From NCBI RefSeq assembly GCF_024585265.1, contig NZ_CP036533.1:806001-870000 (forward strand): a stretch of 64,000 nucleotides of DNA, given 5' to 3'. Both the position numbers and the translations under genes were made by a program. How positions within the stretch are numbered: the stretch's first letter is position 1; each line of letters begins with the position of its first letter. This stretch comes from Bradyrhizobium sp. WBAH42. GTDB taxonomy: Bacteria > Pseudomonadota > Alphaproteobacteria > Rhizobiales > Xanthobacteraceae. Below, in pieces: positions 1-7,551 of this stretch. The notes beneath the pieces were generated by a model. The model saw only the letters and a program-made list of their open reading frames with translations. It did no database searches and was not told where the DNA came from.

Positions 1-539
1 ATGCCGACGAGCGTGCCGGCGAGGAACGCGAGACCTGGATCCTGGCGCGCGATGCCGCGGTGATGGCGCTCTTGTACGGATCGGGGCTGCGCATCTCCGA
101 AGCGCTCTCCCTGAAGCGCCGCGAGGTGCCGCGTCCCGGCGAGGGCGACGTGTTGGTCGTGACCGGCAAGGGCAACAAGACCCGCATGGTGCCGGTGCTG
201 CAAAACGTGCTGGAGCTGGTGCAGGAATACGTTTCGATGTGCCCCTATCCGCTGCCGGCGGAAGAGCCGATCTTCGTCGGCGCGCGCGGCGGTCCCTTGA
301 GCCCGCGCATCATCCAGCTCGCGATGGAGCGGCTGCGCGGTGCGCTTGGGCTGCCGGACAGCGCCACGCCGCACGCGCTGCGCCATTCCTTCGCCACGCA
401 CCTGCTCTCGCGCGGCGGGGACTTGCGCGCCATCCAGGAATTGCTCGGCCATTCCTCGCTGTCGACGACGCAGGTCTATACCGGCATCGATTCCGAGCGG
501 CTGCTGGAGGTCTATGCCAGCGCGCATCCGCGGCGCTGA
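1..539 (+). CDS. xerC: Tyrosine recombinase XerC, C-terminal part (cut by window edge)
   Basis: This is the catalytic half of a tyrosine recombinase that resolves chromosome dimers at dif. The reading frame is open from base 3, so the gene starts outside the window. Visible family marks are the first catalytic Arg in GSGLRISE, the H-x-x-R box in HALRHSFATHLL, the GH of LLGHSS and the nucleophile Tyr in TTQVYT. The end, VYASAHPRR, is more typical of XerC than XerD. The N-terminal SAM-like DNA-binding domain is not in view. A perfect 12-base palindrome (541-552) follows the stop codon. The XerC/XerD assignment is inference from the tail; the recombinase family is certain. Confidence 0.85.
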   Translation, partial: ADERAGEERETWILARDAAVMALLYGSGLRISEALSLKRREVPRPGEGDVLVVTGKGNKTRMVPVLQNVLELVQEYVSMCPYPLPAEEPIFVGARGGPLSPRIIQLAMERLRGALGLPDSATPHALRHSFATHLLSRGGDLRAIQELLGHSSLSTTQVYTGIDSERLLEVYASAHPRR

Positions 540-691
540 GGCACGGCCGTGCGCACTGCACCGCAACGGCAGACAGGCCGTCGACGACCGGTGGAATAGA
601 GCGGATTTCCGTTTACGCGCGTAGGTGGATGGTGCAAAAGACCAATAGGCGGCATGTGCGACCCGCGACTATCGTCTACGGCGTGTGGAAA

Positions 692-940
692 ATGAACAAG
701 ACCTCTCCGGGAATGACTGTGGCGGTGCTGGCCGGAATCGCCGTGCTGATGCCGACCAGCGCCTATGCCTATCTGGATCCGGGGAGCGGCGCCTTCGCCG
801 TACAGGCTCTGCTTGCCGGCATTGCCGGCGGCCTGATCGCCATTCGAGCGTACGGAAAGCGGGTGATGGATTTCTTCCGGCGCTCGAAATCGTCGCCGGA
901 CGTCGCCACCAGCAGATCCATACTGGACCGCGATGCGTGA
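692..940 (+). CDS. Small YLDPGSG-motif membrane protein
   Basis: The predicted product has 82 residues. It has an N-terminal hydrophobic stretch ending TSAYA, which looks like a signal peptide cut just before YLDPGSG. A second hydrophobic segment (VQALLAGIAGGLIAI) follows, then a basic tail with FFRR. From memory, short proteins with a YLDPG(S/T)G motif recur next to methyltransferase and sulfatase-like genes in surface-polysaccharide contexts; the biochemical role is unknown to me. The stop overlaps the next gene's start (ATGCGTGA at 933-940), so the two are probably translationally coupled. An in-frame extension upstream exists, but the ATG at 692 places the signal peptide correctly. Confidence 0.75.
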   Translation: MNKTSPGMTVAVLAGIAVLMPTSAYAYLDPGSGAFAVQALLAGIAGGLIAIRAYGKRVMDFFRRSKSSPDVATSRSILDRDA

Positions 941-2342
941 TCCCGGATCGTTCCGCGATCCCTCAGGCTACGTCTTCACCCATGCTGGCCGAGTTTTTCG
1001 CGCGGTCGAGGACGAAGCATATCGCAACTTCCTGCTGCTGAAATCGTCGGGCGCCTACGACGCGCTGATGGAAAGAGGATGGATCGTCGCCGCGGAGGAG
1101 GCAAGCTCCGACGAGGCGACGCAGACTCTGATCCATGCCGAATCGGATCGACTGAAAGTTCTGGAGCATCCGCGCGTCCCGTTCATCTCCTATCCATATG
1201 AATGGCCGTTCGAGTTGCTCAAGCGCGCCGCCCTGCTCCACCTCGATGTCCATCTGCTCGCGCTCGATTTCGGACTGACGCTGTCGGATGCGACCGCTTA
1301 CAATATTCAGTTCATCGGAATCCGGCCGGTCTTCATCGACATTTCCTCTTTCGTGCCGTACCGGGACGGCGACTATTGGGACGGCCACCGGCAGTTCGTC
1401 GAGCAGTTCGCGAACCCCTTGCTGATGCGCGCGCTGCTCGGCGTCGCCCACAACGCCTGGTACCGGGGCGCGCTGGAAGGCATTCCGACCGCCGACATGG
1501 CCGCGCTGATCGGATGGCCCAAACGGTGGCTCTCCCCGGACGTCCTGACCAACATCACGCTTCCGGACCGTTTTCAGCGACGGGCACGCCGCGAGCCGAA
1601 TCAGCCCTCACGACAGCCAAAGCCGCTGCCCAAAGCCGCGCTTCAGATGATGTTGCGCCGGTTGCGGCGCTGGATCTCCAATCTCGCGCCGAAAGACGTC
1701 GGACCGACCGAATGGCAGCAATATGAGCGCGGCAATCTTTCATATTCCAATACCGAGGAAAGCAGGAAGGAGAAATTCGTCAGTTGCTTCGCGCAGAACA
1801 ATACGCTGGCCTGCGCGTGGGACATCGGCTGCAACACCGGTCGGTATTCGCAAGCGCTTTTGCAAAACCGGGTCCGGTCCGTGATCGGGTTCGACGCCGA
1901 TCTCAATGCGCTCGACGTTGCGGTGGCGCGTGCGACCGCGGACAATCTGGACTTTCTCCCGCTGTTCAGCGATGCCGCAAATCCAAGCCCCGGTCAGGGC
2001 TGGGCGGAGACCGAGCGTTCGGGGCTGCATTCGCGCAGCCGCGCGGACGCCGTTATCGCGCTCGCGATCGTGCACCATCTCGCGATCGGCCGGAACATTC
2101 CGCTGCCGTCGGTGCTGGATTGGCTCGTCGGACTGGCACCCCGCGGCGTGATCGAGTTCGTTCCGAAGTCCGACCCGATGATCCAGCGCATGCTGCGATT
2201 GAGGCGCGACATCTTCGATGGCTATGACGGCGAGCAATTCGAGCGCGCCTTGACCCGCCATGCAGCGATCGTGCGGCGGCTCGAGCTCACCCCGGGCGGC
2301 CGCACGCTGTACGAATTCGCAAGACAGGCCGGTGGAGACTGA
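933..2342 (+). CDS. Two-domain protein: kinase-like N-terminal half and class I SAM methyltransferase
   Basis: The product has 469 residues. The C-terminal half has a class I SAM-binding site: motif I DIGCNTG (297-303) and an acidic strand end VIGFDAD (317-323). The N-terminal half is not a usual methyltransferase extension. It carries D119-x4-N124 followed by FID (D136), the spacing of the catalytic loop (HGDxxxxN) and metal-binding Asp of aminoglycoside-phosphotransferase or protein-kinase-like folds, after a helix rich in His and Leu (about 95-115). The usual catalytic-loop His is absent, so this may be a pseudokinase. It lies between the YLDPGSG gene (8-base overlap) and the phosphatase-superfamily gene (1-base gap), so the three are almost certainly one operon. 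Substrate unknown; a glycan is plausible. Confidence 0.8.
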   Translation: MRDPGSFRDPSGYVFTHAGRVFRAVEDEAYRNFLLLKSSGAYDALMERGWIVAAEEASSDEATQTLIHAESDRLKVLEHPRVPFISYPYEWPFELLKRAALLHLDVHLLALDFGLTLSDATAYNIQFIGIRPVFIDISSFVPYRDGDYWDGHRQFVEQFANPLLMRALLGVAHNAWYRGALEGIPTADMAALIGWPKRWLSPDVLTNITLPDRFQRRARREPNQPSRQPKPLPKAALQMMLRRLRRWISNLAPKDVGPTEWQQYERGNLSYSNTEESRKEKFVSCFAQNNTLACAWDIGCNTGRYSQALLQNRVRSVIGFDADLNALDVAVARATADNLDFLPLFSDAANPSPGQGWAETERSGLHSRSRADAVIALAIVHHLAIGRNIPLPSVLDWLVGLAPRGVIEFVPKSDPMIQRMLRLRRDIFDGYDGEQFERALTRHAAIVRRLELTPGGRTLYEFARQAGGD

Positions 2343-2343
2343 A

Positions 2344-3882
2344 ATGCCGCTACGATCCGATGACAGATTCGTCCTGCTCCGCGCGGTCGCGACGGCTGTA
2401 CTTCTGTCCACGATGGCCCTCCTCAATTTTTACGCAGCGAACATGAGCGCGCTGGCTGGTCCGTCGCGCGTGTTGCAATACGCGGCCGGCATCATGGCGA
2501 TCGCGGCGGTTCTCTCGGTGTGTCTCGCCTTGCTGCTGCGCAAGGTCCCGCCATGGCGCATCGTTCTGGCGGTCGGGCTGACGGTCTTCGTCTTCTTCGC
2601 TTATCGCGTCGAGCTGGTCGAGTACGAGATGAAGGGCCGCTTCGGCGACTGGGCCGCGATCGCCTGGACCGTGATGGCCATCGCCACCGGCATCGGTGCC
2701 CTGATTGTCATCCGCCGACCTGCGCTCGTGACAATCGCACTGGTGGCGTCGTTGGCGTTTGCCGCCCTGCCCGTCACCCGCATCGCGACCGCGCTTGTGA
2801 AGGAGCAGCGCGCGCCGCGCCCGGTGCCGGGCGCCGGTGAGCCGGCGATGAAGCTCACGATGTCTCCCAACATCTATTGGATCGTGCTCGATGCCTATCC
2901 GAGGCAGGACGTCCTCAAGGAAGATTTTTCATTCGACAACAGCGGCTTCCTCGCCTCGCTCGGCGCGAAGGACTTTACGGTATTTCGCAATGCCCGCTCG
3001 AATTTTCCGGCGACGGCCAATTCGATATCGAGCACGGCCAACGCCGACTACACCGTCGAGGGCGAAGGCAAGGACCTCAAGGCTTTCCCGCTGGAGCGGC
3101 TATATCCGCTCGTTCGAGGCAAGAACCGGACGGTGGCCCGGCTCACCTCGGCCGGATACAGCTATGTCCATTTTGAAAACGGCTATGACAACCTGACCAA
3201 ATGCGCGTTCGACGGGCCGCGTTGCCTGCGCGGGAATGTCGGGCTGGACGAGATGGACGTCGCCATTCTCTCCAACACACCGATCATCGACTTGATCATC
3301 GGTCGGCGGCAGTCGCCGTTTGCGTGGGGCGGCGTCGATGACCTGACCCGTCTGTTGAATGAGGTCCAGGCGACTCCATCGCCGTTCTTCCTGTACGCAC
3401 ACATCCTGGTCCCGCATATCCCGTTCCGCTTCACGGCGGACTGCGGTTTCCGCTCGGCCGCCCCGGACCTGCAGCGCTGGGACCCGGCGAGCCGCCCGGC
3501 CTTCCTCGACCAGCTCCGCTGCACCAACTCTCAGACGCTGACGCTCGTCGACAAGATTGTCACGTCAGATCCCGACGCACTGATCATCCTGCAGTCGGAT
3601 CATGGCACGGACTTCCGCGGCCAGACCAAGCGCTCGCCATCTACCTGGTCGGACGCCGATCTCCACGAGCGCTTCGGCGTTCTGAACGCAATTCGGCTGC
3701 CGAAGCAATGCCGCGCGGCCGCTCCAGACGACATCACCTTGATCGACACCTTTCCGCTGGTCTTTGCCTGCCTGACCGGCGGCGCGTTTGAACCGCGTCA
3801 ACCGCGCTTCTTTGTCACCCCGTATGACGACATGCCCGATTTCGGGGATGCGGTCGAGTTTCCGGCTGAGCGGGTACGGTGA
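2344..3882 (+). CDS. Membrane-anchored sulfatase / alkaline-phosphatase-superfamily protein
   Basis: The product has 512 residues. Five hydrophobic segments span about residues 9-150, followed by a catalytic domain expected in the periplasm. The domain opens with NIYWIVLDAYPR, whose Asp (D183) is the usual first metal ligand. NFPATANS (219-226) is the likely nucleophile region with T224. HILVPHIPF (H353, H358) and QSDHG (D419-H420) are the C-terminal metal-binding motifs. Family members include sulfatases and phosphoethanolamine or phosphoglycerol transferases; I cannot tell which applies. It starts one base after the stop of the methyltransferase fusion gene. Together they suggest modification of an exported polysaccharide or lipid. 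Confidence 0.8.
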   Translation: MPLRSDDRFVLLRAVATAVLLSTMALLNFYAANMSALAGPSRVLQYAAGIMAIAAVLSVCLALLLRKVPPWRIVLAVGLTVFVFFAYRVELVEYEMKGRFGDWAAIAWTVMAIATGIGALIVIRRPALVTIALVASLAFAALPVTRIATALVKEQRAPRPVPGAGEPAMKLTMSPNIYWIVLDAYPRQDVLKEDFSFDNSGFLASLGAKDFTVFRNARSNFPATANSISSTANADYTVEGEGKDLKAFPLERLYPLVRGKNRTVARLTSAGYSYVHFENGYDNLTKCAFDGPRCLRGNVGLDEMDVAILSNTPIIDLIIGRRQSPFAWGGVDDLTRLLNEVQATPSPFFLYAHILVPHIPFRFTADCGFRSAAPDLQRWDPASRPAFLDQLRCTNSQTLTLVDKIVTSDPDALIILQSDHGTDFRGQTKRSPSTWSDADLHERFGVLNAIRLPKQCRAAAPDDITLIDTFPLVFACLTGGAFEPRQPRFFVTPYDDMPDFGDAVEFPAERVR

Positions 3883-4021
3883 ACGACCGATGTGTCGCGG
3901 CGCGGCCTCCCCCACAGGCTGCGCAGCCGGCAGACTGACACACTCTCGTCATAGCGCGCGTGCCTCTTGCGCAGGCCGCGCGGTTCGGTCAATCGTTGCG
4001 GAACCGACCAAGAGGGGAATC

Positions 4022-4609
4022 ATGAGCGCACATGAAAGCATGGAGCATGCCGAGCACGCCGAACACGCGTCCGGCTCGAACAAGAAGATCGCCCTTCTGA
4101 TCGCCGTGCTGGCGCTTTTCCTTGCGATCTCGGAGACGCTCGGCAAGGGGGCCCAGACCGAATCGATCAGCAAGAACGTCGAAGCCGCCAATCTCTGGGC
4201 GTTCTTCCAGGCCAAGAGCATCCGCCGCACCGTGGTGGTGACCGCGGCCGAGCAGGGCAAGCTGACGCTGGCCGCCGCGGACGAGGCGCAGAAGCCCGCC
4301 GTGCAGAAGCAGATCGAGGATTGGACCAAGACCGCGCAGCGCTACCGCTCCGAGCCCGAGACCGGCGAAGGCACCGAGCAGCTTGCGGAGAAGGCCAAGC
4401 ACGCCGAGCACGACCGCGACGAGGCGACCGCGAAATACCACCATTTCGAGCTGGCCTCGGCCGCCTTCCAGATCGGCATCGTGCTGGCCTCGGCCACCAT
4501 CATCACCGGCATGTTCGCGCTCGCCTATGTCGGCGGCGTGCTGACGATCGCCGGCCTGATCATGACCGCACTCGGCCTGTGGTGGCCGCATCTGCTGCAT
4601 TTGCATTGA
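4022..4609 (+). CDS. DUF4337 family membrane protein
   Basis: The product has 195 residues. A His- and Glu-rich N-terminus (HAEHAEHA) precedes a membrane segment (about 20-40, KKIALLIAVLALFLAI). A charged helical middle of about 90 residues looks coiled coil, and two membrane segments lie at the C-terminus, ending LWWPHLLHLH. This is the layout of DUF4337 proteins. The function is unknown. The ATG at 4022 is preceded by a good ribosome site (AAGAGGGGA). It is 139 bases from the sulfatase-like gene, so it is probably a separate unit. Confidence 0.8.
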   Translation: MSAHESMEHAEHAEHASGSNKKIALLIAVLALFLAISETLGKGAQTESISKNVEAANLWAFFQAKSIRRTVVVTAAEQGKLTLAAADEAQKPAVQKQIEDWTKTAQRYRSEPETGEGTEQLAEKAKHAEHDRDEATAKYHHFELASAAFQIGIVLASATIITGMFALAYVGGVLTIAGLIMTALGLWWPHLLHLH

Positions 4610-4647
4610 GGGGAGCGTGTGGCGCGCGCCCGAAACCACACAGACAG

Positions 4648-4752
4648 TGTCATGCCCCGGCTTGACCGGGGCATCCAGTACGCCGCGGCTTCTCGGTTCA
4701 ATCACTGACGTCTCTGGAATACTGGATCGCCCGGTCAAGCCGGGCGATGACA
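4648..4752. repeat. Palindromic intergenic repeat (CCCCGGCTTGACCGGGG type)
   Basis: An imperfect inverted repeat. TGTCATGCCCCGGCTTGACC on the left mirrors GGTCAAGCCGGGCGATGACA on the right, with internal CATCCAGTA/TACTGGAT arms. It lies between two convergent genes, where its transcript could fold as a terminator. Related copies are at 8893-9012 and 47641-47764. Confidence 0.85.
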
Positions 4753-4771
4753 GCGAGCGTGTGGTGAACAG

Positions 4772-5302
4772 CTAGCGCGCCTGGTGCACGCTCTTCCTGA
4801 AACGCTGGATCATACGCAACGTGCGGGACGACCAGCCCTCGCCGTCGCCGGCGATCAATTCGCGGATGCGGCGCTTGATCGGGTCGACCAGCTCCGCAGC
4901 CTTGGCGCGGATCTTCAGCACCAGCCCGTAGATCCGCTCAAACCAGCGCATCTCCAGAAGCTTGGCGCGCGTGACGTCGAACACGAAGGCGGTAACGCCG
5001 ACGCCGATGAGCTTCGCGAACACGATCGTGAAGACGGCGCTGGTCCAGTATTCGTGCGCGAGCAGCCACAGGCCGACCAGCTTGAGCGGAAACAGCGGGA
5101 CGATTGGGACCGCGAACACGATCAGCGTCATGGCCGGCGACAGCGCATCGACGCGCTCGGTCAGCCATTGCTTGAAGCGCGCAAGCGGGATGGCTGCGAC
5201 GACCTTGGCAACGATCGGCTCGAGATGGTCCCACAGCCAGGCTTCGATCAGGAAGACGATCGCAAGCAGGACCCAGACCGGTTGAAGAAGGCGGCGCAGC
5301 AT
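4772..5302 (-). CDS. Conserved hypothetical membrane protein
   Basis: The product has 176 residues. Hydrophobic segments appear near the start (PVWVLLAIVFLIEAWLW), in the middle (MTLIVFAVPIVPLFPLKLVGLWLLA) and after that (AVFTIVFAKLIGVGVTAFVF). A basic amphipathic C-terminal part (KIRAKAAELVDPIKRRIREL) is probably cytoplasmic. The reading frame extends upstream into lpd, but the ATG at 5302 (MLRRLLQ) gives a normal start 34 bases after the lpd stop. It is the last gene of the minus-strand TCA block and is probably co-transcribed. No function is recognised; the length and layout recall conserved Rhizobiales membrane proteins. Confidence 0.7.
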   Translation of the reverse strand: MLRRLLQPVWVLLAIVFLIEAWLWDHLEPIVAKVVAAIPLARFKQWLTERVDALSPAMTLIVFAVPIVPLFPLKLVGLWLLAHEYWTSAVFTIVFAKLIGVGVTAFVFDVTRAKLLEMRWFERIYGLVLKIRAKAAELVDPIKRRIRELIAGDGEGWSSRTLRMIQRFRKSVHQAR

Positions 5303-5336
5303 GTGTTTCCCGCCCGATTTGGCGCTGGGCGCTTCG

Positions 5337-6737
<1,401 letters not shown>

Positions 6738-6789
6738 GAGAGAAAGTCCCGTAAGGTTAGGCGTGATGAGGATGAGTCCGCGCGGCGCC

Positions 6790-7551
6790 TCAGCGTCCGC
6801 CGGACACATCGAGAATGGCTGAGGTGACGTAGGAGGCCTCGTCCGAGATCAGCCAGACGATGGCATTGGCGATTTCGTCGGCGGTGCCGACGCGCTTCAT
6901 CGGCACCAGATGGGCCAGACGATGGGCGCGGTCGGGCTCGCCACCGGCGGCGTGGATTTCGGTGTCGATCAGGCCGGGACGGATCGCAGCGACGCGAATG
7001 CCCTCGCCCGCGACCTCATAACCGAGGCCGACGGTGAAGGAATCGACCGCGCCCTTGGACGCGGCGTAGTCGACATAGGTGTTGGGTGCGCCGAGACGGG
7101 CCGCGACCGAGGACAGGTTGACGATGACGCCGCCCTTGCCGCCGTGCTTGGTCGACATCCGCTTCACTGCTTCACGCGCGCAGAGGATGGAGCCGGTGAC
7201 GTTGACGGCCATCACGCGCTGGATGCGCTCGGCCGACATCTCGTCGACACGCACGCCGCTCTTGCCGACAATGCCGCCATTGTTGACGAGCGCGCCGAGC
7301 GTACCGAACTTGTCGGCCTCCTTGAACAAATTGAGGATGTCGCTTTCCTCGGCGACATCGCACTTCACAGCGATGGCCTTGCCATTGCTGGCCGCGATCT
7401 GCGCGACCACCTCGTCGGCCGCATTCTTGTTGCTGGCATAGCCGACCACGACGCGGAAGCCGCGCGCGGCCGCCGCAAGCGCGGTCGCACGACCGATGCC
7501 GCGGCTGCCGCCGGTGATGACAACGACTTTATCCGTCACGGGCGCCTCCAT
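6790..7551 (-). CDS. Short-chain dehydrogenase/reductase
   Basis: The product has 253 residues and is a classical SDR. It has the cofactor motif TGGSRGIG (13-20), NNGG in place of the usual NNAG, a catalytic Ser in NLSSVA and Y-x3-K in DYAASK. The end, [14 protein letters not shown], is typical of the glucose-1-dehydrogenase/FabG-like group. The substrate is not predictable. It lies between sucB (54 bases) and lpd (52 bases), in the same direction, so it is probably transcribed with the 2-oxoglutarate dehydrogenase genes although it has no known role in that complex. Confidence 0.88.

What the first reader, a model, noticed from the sequence alone, without database searches (positions are those of the whole stretch)
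692..3882. Tight three-gene block: YLDPGSG micro-protein, kinase-like/methyltransferase fusion, membrane phosphatase-superfamily enzyme
The three genes overlap or abut (8-base overlap, then 1-base gap), so they act together. One is a signal-peptide micro-protein, one combines a kinase-like and a methyltransferase domain, and one places an alkaline-phosphatase-superfamily domain outside the membrane. A kinase plus methyltransferase pairing is known from WbdD, which caps O-antigen chains with methyl phosphate. By analogy this block may modify or cap an exported glycan. No other polysaccharide gene is next to it, so it would act on a polymer made elsewhere. Pathway and substrate are inference.
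Basis: partly seen in the sequence, partly recalled or inferred. Interest (0 to 1): 0.72.

Follow-up and report, generated by a model that had tools for sequence, protein, structure and literature searches.

The report
Tyrosine microprotein with NoeA/NoeB-like surface-modification enzymes
A three-gene block in a Bradyrhizobium-like genome is the unstudied cousin of the nodulation genes noeA and noeB plus an overlooked tiny membrane protein, and matching sulfation operons suggest that the tiny protein may ferry a chemical group across the membrane on a fixed tyrosine.

Summary
Observation confirmed to the base. The 469-residue protein has a kinase-fold N-half (model pLDDT 93) and a methyltransferase C-half. 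The block is collinear with Sinorhizobium meliloti nodL-[71-aa 'hypothetical']-noeA-noeB. The kinase-methyltransferase/NoeB pairing is already in print (PMC9758233). Not found in print is the pattern around the microprotein. It lies within 2 kb of the kinase-methyltransferase in 91 of 96 close relatives, and 4 of the other 5 genomes carry it elsewhere. It has an invariant Tyr at the predicted +1 residue of its signal-peptide site. Sister microproteins with the same Tyr sit with a cytosolic-type sulfotransferase and a membrane-anchored arylsulfotransferase: 13 of 13 genomes holding that subfamily, 3 of them new to the search. Best reading: a relay. A cytosolic enzyme loads methyl-phosphate (here) or sulfate (sisters) on the Tyr; an outer-face enzyme passes it to an envelope acceptor. 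The parts are shown; the relay and acceptor are inferred. WbdD is an analogy, not the family.

The parts
692..940 (+). Microprotein (82 aa), two hydrophobic segments (residues 8-26 and 33-51) around the YLDPGSG motif
770..772 (+). Codon of Tyr27, invariant; predicted +1 residue after the A-Y-A signal-peptidase site (proposed group-carrying residue)
   Evidence: invariant column in 19 of 19 aligned; motif with Tyr found in 92 of 92 family A, 21 of 21 family B, 4 of 4 family C (a pattern that asks for Tyr; allowed Phe)
933..2342 (+). NoeA-like kinase-methyltransferase fusion (469 aa), no hydrophobic segment
933..1697 (+). N-terminal kinase-fold domain (residues 1-255)
   Evidence: model pLDDT 93; fold matches are kinases
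1287..1340 (+). Kinase catalytic residues D119 (1287-1289), N124 (1302-1304), D136 (1338-1340); R23 (999-1001) lies outside this range
   Evidence: invariant in 97 of 97 aligned sequences
1698..2330 (+). C-terminal class I SAM methyltransferase domain (residues 256-466; DIGCNTG motif at residues 297-303)
2344..3882 (+). NoeB-like membrane-anchored alkaline-phosphatase-superfamily enzyme (512 aa)
   Evidence: PF00884 E 1.2e-9; blastp to NoeB E 4e-7; hydrophobic N-terminal part
3013..3015 (+). Codon of Thr224, candidate nucleophile of gene 3 (Thr in 8, Ser in 1 of 9 aligned); D183, H353, H358, D419, H420 invariant in the 9
   Evidence: alignment A7; the role of these residues is recalled from the superfamily

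Best explanation
The block is a complete copy of a widespread three-part envelope-modification system (microprotein, NoeA-type kinase-methyltransferase, NoeB-type alkaline-phosphatase-superfamily transferase). Shown here: gene identities, folds, conserved catalytic residues, close association of the three genes, and parallel sulfation operons built round sister microproteins. Inferred mechanism: the cytosolic kinase-methyltransferase puts a phosphate, then a methyl group, on the invariant Tyr of the microprotein. The resulting methyl-phosphate diester has one negative charge, like a sulfate ester. The microprotein is exported and cut so that this Tyr is its first residue on the outer face of the inner membrane. 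The NoeB-type enzyme then moves the methyl-phosphate to an envelope or exported glycan. The sister operons do the same with sulfate (PAPS sulfotransferase, Tyr, then arylsulfotransferase or sulfatase-type enzyme).
Against: No modified Tyr has been seen. A Tyr exposed outside cannot be reloaded by a cytosolic enzyme, so each microprotein would serve once unless it flips. In the review read, Tyr peptides appear as acceptors of arylsulfotransferases, so the direction is not given (PMC13426309). The 96 loci are close relatives (the best 80 of at least 580 plus sampled genomes); a published wider survey gives 65% and 38% for the two neighbours of the related gene Lani_1194 in 816 loci (PMC9758233). 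21 of 96 loci have no AP-type gene nearby (5 of the 21 have under 1 kb left downstream); of those 21 genomes 2 have no match at E 1e-5 and many of the other 19 have only weak ones that may be ordinary sulfatases. One NoeA-type gene (L081) sits beside an acyltransferase with its microprotein elsewhere. In family C the microprotein is on the opposite strand to both enzymes. A few microproteins lack a clear signal peptide by eye (L120, L121), and the tail after the second hydrophobic segment is net positive in only 62 of 89. The methyltransferase fold list is headed by enzymes that do not act on phosphate. Published work is read as Nod-factor modification in the cytoplasm (PMC9758233).
Confidence: 0.4

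Rival explanations
1. WbdD-like direct capping: gene 2 phosphorylates and methylates a glycan or lipid-linked glycan in the cytosol; the microprotein is only a membrane anchor or docking subunit; gene 3 trims or transfers something else outside.
For: WbdD precedent (PMC3482155 passages); WbdD among the best sequence matches of the methyltransferase half; NoeA/NoeB are held to modify Nod factor (PMC9048898 passage and PMC9758233); L081 sits beside an acyltransferase; a few neighbours are sugar genes (glycosyltransferase family 2 in 5 of 85, epimerase in 2 of 85 and 3 of 112, polysaccharide synthesis protein in 2 of 112).
Against: No polysaccharide gene is regularly linked: the neighbour tallies are mixed housekeeping genes (only the first 25 families of each tally are shown). 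It does not explain the invariant Tyr, or why sulfotransferase plus arylsulfotransferase operons use the same kind of microprotein.
Confidence: 0.33
2. The microprotein is the end product: a surface-displayed, Tyr-modified peptide (signal or adhesion tag), with the outer enzyme removing or editing the group.
For: A bacterial peptide sulfated on Tyr, RaxX, is known (PMC6637879, start of abstract in the listing; RaxST as its sulfotransferase is recalled); noeA is truncated in a nodulation-deficient S. meliloti strain (PMC4053727, passage).
Against: By record titles the gene 2 relatives come from soil, marine and groundwater bacteria of several phyla; in families B and C an outer transferase or sulfatase-type enzyme was found with the microprotein in 25 of 25 loci read.
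Confidence: 0.12
3. The microprotein is a structural subunit or activator of the outer-face enzyme, with no chemical role; Tyr is a packing residue.
For: Distant microproteins stand next to AP-type genes in 3 of 4 cases.
Against: In 17 of the 21 loci without an AP gene nearby the microprotein is still near the NoeA-type gene; two unrelated kinds of outer enzyme (AP-type and arylsulfotransferase) would both need a Tyr at the cleavage site.
Confidence: 0.1

Closest known systems
Sinorhizobium meliloti nodL-noeA-noeB operon (nod box n5)
   Same: Same order of microprotein, noeA, noeB; p2 45% identical to NoeA over 467 residues; p3 and NoeB both PF00884, with PHxP...DC and DHG motifs in common.
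   Different: No nodL and no ATC-N9-GAT (nod box core, recalled) in the 151 bases upstream on the + strand; chromosomal position 0.81 Mb, nodA of this genome at 7.72 Mb. Of 12 block-bearing genus genomes, 5 have a strong NodA match, 3 a weak one, 4 none.
Lani_1194 kinase-methyltransferase family (PMC9758233)
   Same: Described there with NoeA as homolog; Arg in place of the kinase Lys, conserved Asp/Asn/Asp, no ion-pair Glu found; AP-fold neighbour (section 8). Fits R23, D119, N124, D136 here.
   Different: That text counts neighbours Lani_1193 (65%) and Lani_1195 (38%) of 816; the two places that name Lani_1193 do not say what it is (supplements could not be read). The Tyr, the sulfation sisters and a relay are not in the section read.
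WbdD of Escherichia coli O9a
   Same: Kinase and methyltransferase in one chain, making methyl-phosphate (PMC3482155 passages).
   Different: Order methyltransferase-kinase-coiled coil in WbdD, kinase-methyltransferase without tail here; no O-antigen cluster beside it.
PAPS-independent arylsulfotransferases (families B here; caprazamycin Cpz4 as precedent)
   Same: Group transfer from an aryl donor; Cpz4 is an AST with an established role (PMC13426309 passage). That its donor is a phenolic compound loaded by a PAPS sulfotransferase is recalled, not read.
   Different: Here the carrier would be a protein Tyr and, in the window, the group a methyl-phosphate.

Membership tests
NoeA family (kinase-methyltransferase) | Full-length sequence homology to NoeA | tested here: met
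   45% identity over 467 residues, E 2e-125
NoeA family (kinase-methyltransferase) | Kinase fold with D...N...D and Arg at the Lys position | tested here: met
   Arg assignment by analogy with PMC9758233
NoeA family (kinase-methyltransferase) | Enzymatic kinase and methyltransferase activity | not testable with these tools
   none; no activity reported in the passages read
NoeB / alkaline-phosphatase superfamily, membrane transferase type | PF00884 domain with Thr/Ser nucleophile and Asp/His metal ligands | tested here: met
   D183, T224 (Ser in one), H353, H358, D419, H420 in 9 of 9; their roles are recalled
NoeB / alkaline-phosphatase superfamily, membrane transferase type | N-terminal membrane helices before the catalytic domain | tested here: met
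   hydropathy only: six partly overlapping segments within residues 9-152
WbdD | Order methyltransferase, kinase, C-terminal coiled coil | tested here: not met
   kinase first, methyltransferase last, protein ends at 469 against PMC3482155
WbdD | Inside an ABC-transporter O-antigen cluster (cluster recalled) | tested here: not met
   flanks are xerC-like, priA-like, atp, lpd-like and sucB-like genes (names by eye from translations)
WbdD | Methyl-phosphate on a sugar | not testable with these tools
   fold and sequence resemblance only
Nod-factor modification operon | nod box and neighbouring nod genes | tested here: not met
   no ATC-N9-GAT in 541-691, + strand; nodA lies at 7.72 Mb

The most novel reading that the evidence does not exclude
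A new class of protein-based group carriers: tiny exported membrane proteins whose first mature residue, an invariant tyrosine, is charged in the cytosol with methyl-phosphate (kinase-methyltransferase) or sulfate (PAPS sulfotransferase) and discharged outside the inner membrane by unrelated enzymes (alkaline-phosphatase-superfamily or arylsulfotransferase), giving bacteria activated groups where ATP, SAM and PAPS are absent.
Probability: 0.38. Interest if true: 0.93.

Novelty: new variant of a known kind. Interest (0 to 1): 0.72.

Why it matters
It would explain what NoeA and NoeB do, give a natural donor for a group of bacterial arylsulfotransferases, whose natural substrates are said to be unknown (PMC13426309, passages), and reveal a general way to bring activated sulfate or phosphate across a membrane. 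It also draws attention to an overlooked small gene of the nod box n5 operon, between nodL and noeA, annotated only as hypothetical in the record read.

Tried and rejected
A search of the 5.8-billion protein database could not be made (database switched off). PDB sequence search of gene 2 alone gave nothing, of gene 3 eight hits at E 0.37 or worse, of the N-half profile nothing. A viral-contig scan found no relative. Fold search with the full-length model showed the methyltransferase half only, so the N-half was folded alone. In one search, 48 of the 50 listed rows are kinases or kinase complexes by title; the other two (6zxg_z, 6zxe_z) are chains of pre-40S particles, perhaps RIO kinase (recalled). 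In one search, 45 rows are kinases and 5 are RNase L, matched in residues 366-590. These lists do not exclude other kinase-like families. The idea that the block belongs to a local polysaccharide cluster was not supported: Pfam tallies of 197 neighbour proteins (85 plus 112, picked by hand from the 320 listed, which had left out the syntenic Bradyrhizobium loci) show mixed genes, with some sugar genes (first 25 families of 112 and of 173 shown). A link to nodulation in this genome was not supported.

Rows dropped before counts: L047, L098, L111 (same genomes as L027, L035, L029) and L046 (the window) from 100 loci, leaving 96. The microprotein profile A2 was built from 19 of the loci. The arylsulfotransferase profile A8 was built from 9 loci found by the microprotein, so only 3 of its 13 genomes are independent. 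Of 21 microprotein places in family f22, 17 were read for context. One microprotein hit (G381, L163) was judged spurious, and one (G270 second hit, L162) was not recovered. The Tyr count uses a pattern that asks for Tyr; one search allowed Phe and gave Tyr in 89 of 90, the one Phe (L115) being a mis-picked place just before AYIDPG, and 2 more (L045, L117) had failed that stricter pattern. The control for +1 residues had only 12 proteins (0 Tyr), too few to weigh.
Full report
OBSERVATION. The three genes are at the stated places: 692-940, 933-2342 and 2344-3882, all on the + strand, with the stated 8-base overlap and 1-base gap. The window is G000:C1:806001-870000 in an 8.29 Mb single-contig genome; a named relative with 92% identical gene 2 is Bradyrhizobium diazoefficiens SZCCT0449, so Bradyrhizobium is inferred.

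IDENTITY. A plasmid search with gene 2 gave 65 of 72,556 records, 57 of them Sinorhizobium; 5 of the 40 rows listed are annotated NoeA. In S. meliloti pSymA (CP140953.1) the order is nodL, a hypothetical 71-residue protein, noeA, noeB. The three window proteins match these three in order: 32% over 62 residues, E 2e-9; 45% over 467 residues, E 2e-125; 25%, E 4e-7, with the same Pfam domain.

HOW COMMON. Gene 2 relatives, the window's own counted, occur in 4 of 149 family genomes, 11 of 146 genus genomes and 9 of 398 phylum genomes. In 96 non-window loci (19 from the genome samples, 77 from the scan after removing 3 duplicates) the microprotein is directly upstream on the same strand in 81, elsewhere within 2 kb in 10, and not found in 5; all 5 are from the scan, so 72 of 77 loci not used to build the profile have it. 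A NoeB-like gene lies within 1 kb in 75 of 96. Of the 5 genomes without a local microprotein, 4 have one elsewhere, and in 3 of those it stands beside an AP-superfamily gene. The fifth has gene 2 at a contig edge. Of the 21 genomes without a nearby NoeB-like gene, 19 have some AP-superfamily match at E 1e-5, many of them weak. These loci are close relatives; the wider published survey gives 65% and 38% for the two neighbours of Lani_1194.

SISTER SYSTEMS. Searching the same number of phylum genomes (398) with the microprotein profile alone gave 21 genomes: all 9 with gene 2, and 12 more. Ten of these 12 hold a Y[VIS]GPG.G microprotein with an arylsulfotransferase (PF14269 in those scanned) and a sulfotransferase (PF13469 in those scanned); one holds a YIDPN microprotein between a sulfotransferase and an AP-superfamily enzyme, on the other strand; one is spurious. 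Eleven more loci of the first kind and three of the second came from family f22. In reverse, a profile of these arylsulfotransferases found strong matches (E below 1e-70) in 13 of 398 genomes. In all 13 the microprotein and the sulfotransferase are with it (for L239 the microprotein is upstream, seen in L159); 10 of the 13 were already known from the microprotein search, 3 were new. Two extra paralogs in those genomes (L253, L255) and nine weaker places (E 8.3e-32 to 2.6e-12) have no microprotein in the stretch read.

THE TYROSINE. Family A: Y-x-D found in 92 of 92, Ala at -1 in 87 of 92, an AxA-like site in 89 of 92. Family B: Y-x-G-P-G-x-G in 21 of 21. Family C: Y-I-D-P-N in 4 of 4 (see the caveats under Tried and rejected). 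Tyr is thus at the predicted +1 position in all three, Asp or Gly two residues on follows the type of outer enzyme, and the enzymes that could load it differ. Hydropathy finds no membrane segment in 7 of 7 loading-type enzymes (NoeA-type, sulfotransferase) and at least one in 8 of 8 outer-type enzymes.

MECHANISM. Arylsulfotransferases transfer sulfate from aryl sulfates, in EcAST through His436, and their natural substrates are said to be unknown (PMC13426309, passages). The family B enzymes keep H198, H199, H277, R305 and H332 in 22 of 22 sequences. A Tyr-sulfate made by the neighbouring sulfotransferase would be a fitting donor. In the same way NoeA-type enzymes would make a Tyr methyl-phosphate, a singly charged ester of the kind that sulfatase- and phosphodiesterase-like members of the AP superfamily use (recalled). 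This accounts for the fused methyltransferase: it turns a doubly charged phosphate into a sulfate-like group. A bacterial Tyr-sulfated peptide is known (RaxX; start of abstract in a listing). The relay, the methyl-phosphate and the acceptor are inference.

AGAINST IT. One-use carriers are costly. In the review, Tyr peptides are listed as acceptors, not donors. Some loci lack the outer enzyme nearby. A few microproteins lack a clear signal peptide, and the tail is net positive in only 62 of 89. The methyltransferase fold list is headed by non-phosphate enzymes. No chemistry was measured.

PRIOR ART. PMC9758233 (section 8 and passages) already describes this kinase-methyltransferase family, its NoeA link, the Arg-for-Lys change and the AP-fold neighbour, and reports a second neighbour, Lani_1193, in 65% of 816 loci without saying there what it is; it may be the microprotein. 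PMC4053727 (passage) reports truncated noeA in a nodulation-deficient S. meliloti strain. Searches for the motif and for related sulfation and methyl-phosphate systems listed nothing on this microprotein family by title, start of abstract or term counts; the 1995 noeA paper was not read (one search failed).

VERDICT. The block itself is a chromosomal member of a known, barely studied system. What is new, as far as these searches go, is the microprotein as its regular partner and the parallel with sulfation operons, which makes a clear and cheap test possible.

Noticed in passing
L127:6757-6972: In S. meliloti pSymA a gene between nodL and noeA, annotated only as hypothetical, encodes a YLDPGTG microprotein and overlaps noeA.
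   Followed up: yes
L151-L161 (not L155), L185-L195: Loci with arylsulfotransferase, Y[VIS]GPG microprotein and sulfotransferase; in many also a 238-254 aa protein with hydrophobic segments and no Pfam family (L153:7792-8532).
   Followed up: partly
L155, L182, L183, L184: Third kind: YIDPN microprotein beside a roughly 670-residue AP-superfamily enzyme and a sulfotransferase, on the opposite strand.
   Followed up: partly
L081:7962-11398: NoeA-type gene followed by an acyltransferase/SGNH protein, with the microprotein elsewhere in the genome.
   Followed up: partly
window 1-692 and 3883-6827: In six other Bradyrhizobium loci (clusters of six, apparently L027-L032) the block has the same xerC-like and lpd-like flanks as in the window; only 11 of 146 genus genomes have a gene 2 relative.
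   Followed up: partly
G000:C1:7722510-7723094: The genome carries nodA (PF02474, E 4.5e-100), far from the block.
   Followed up: no
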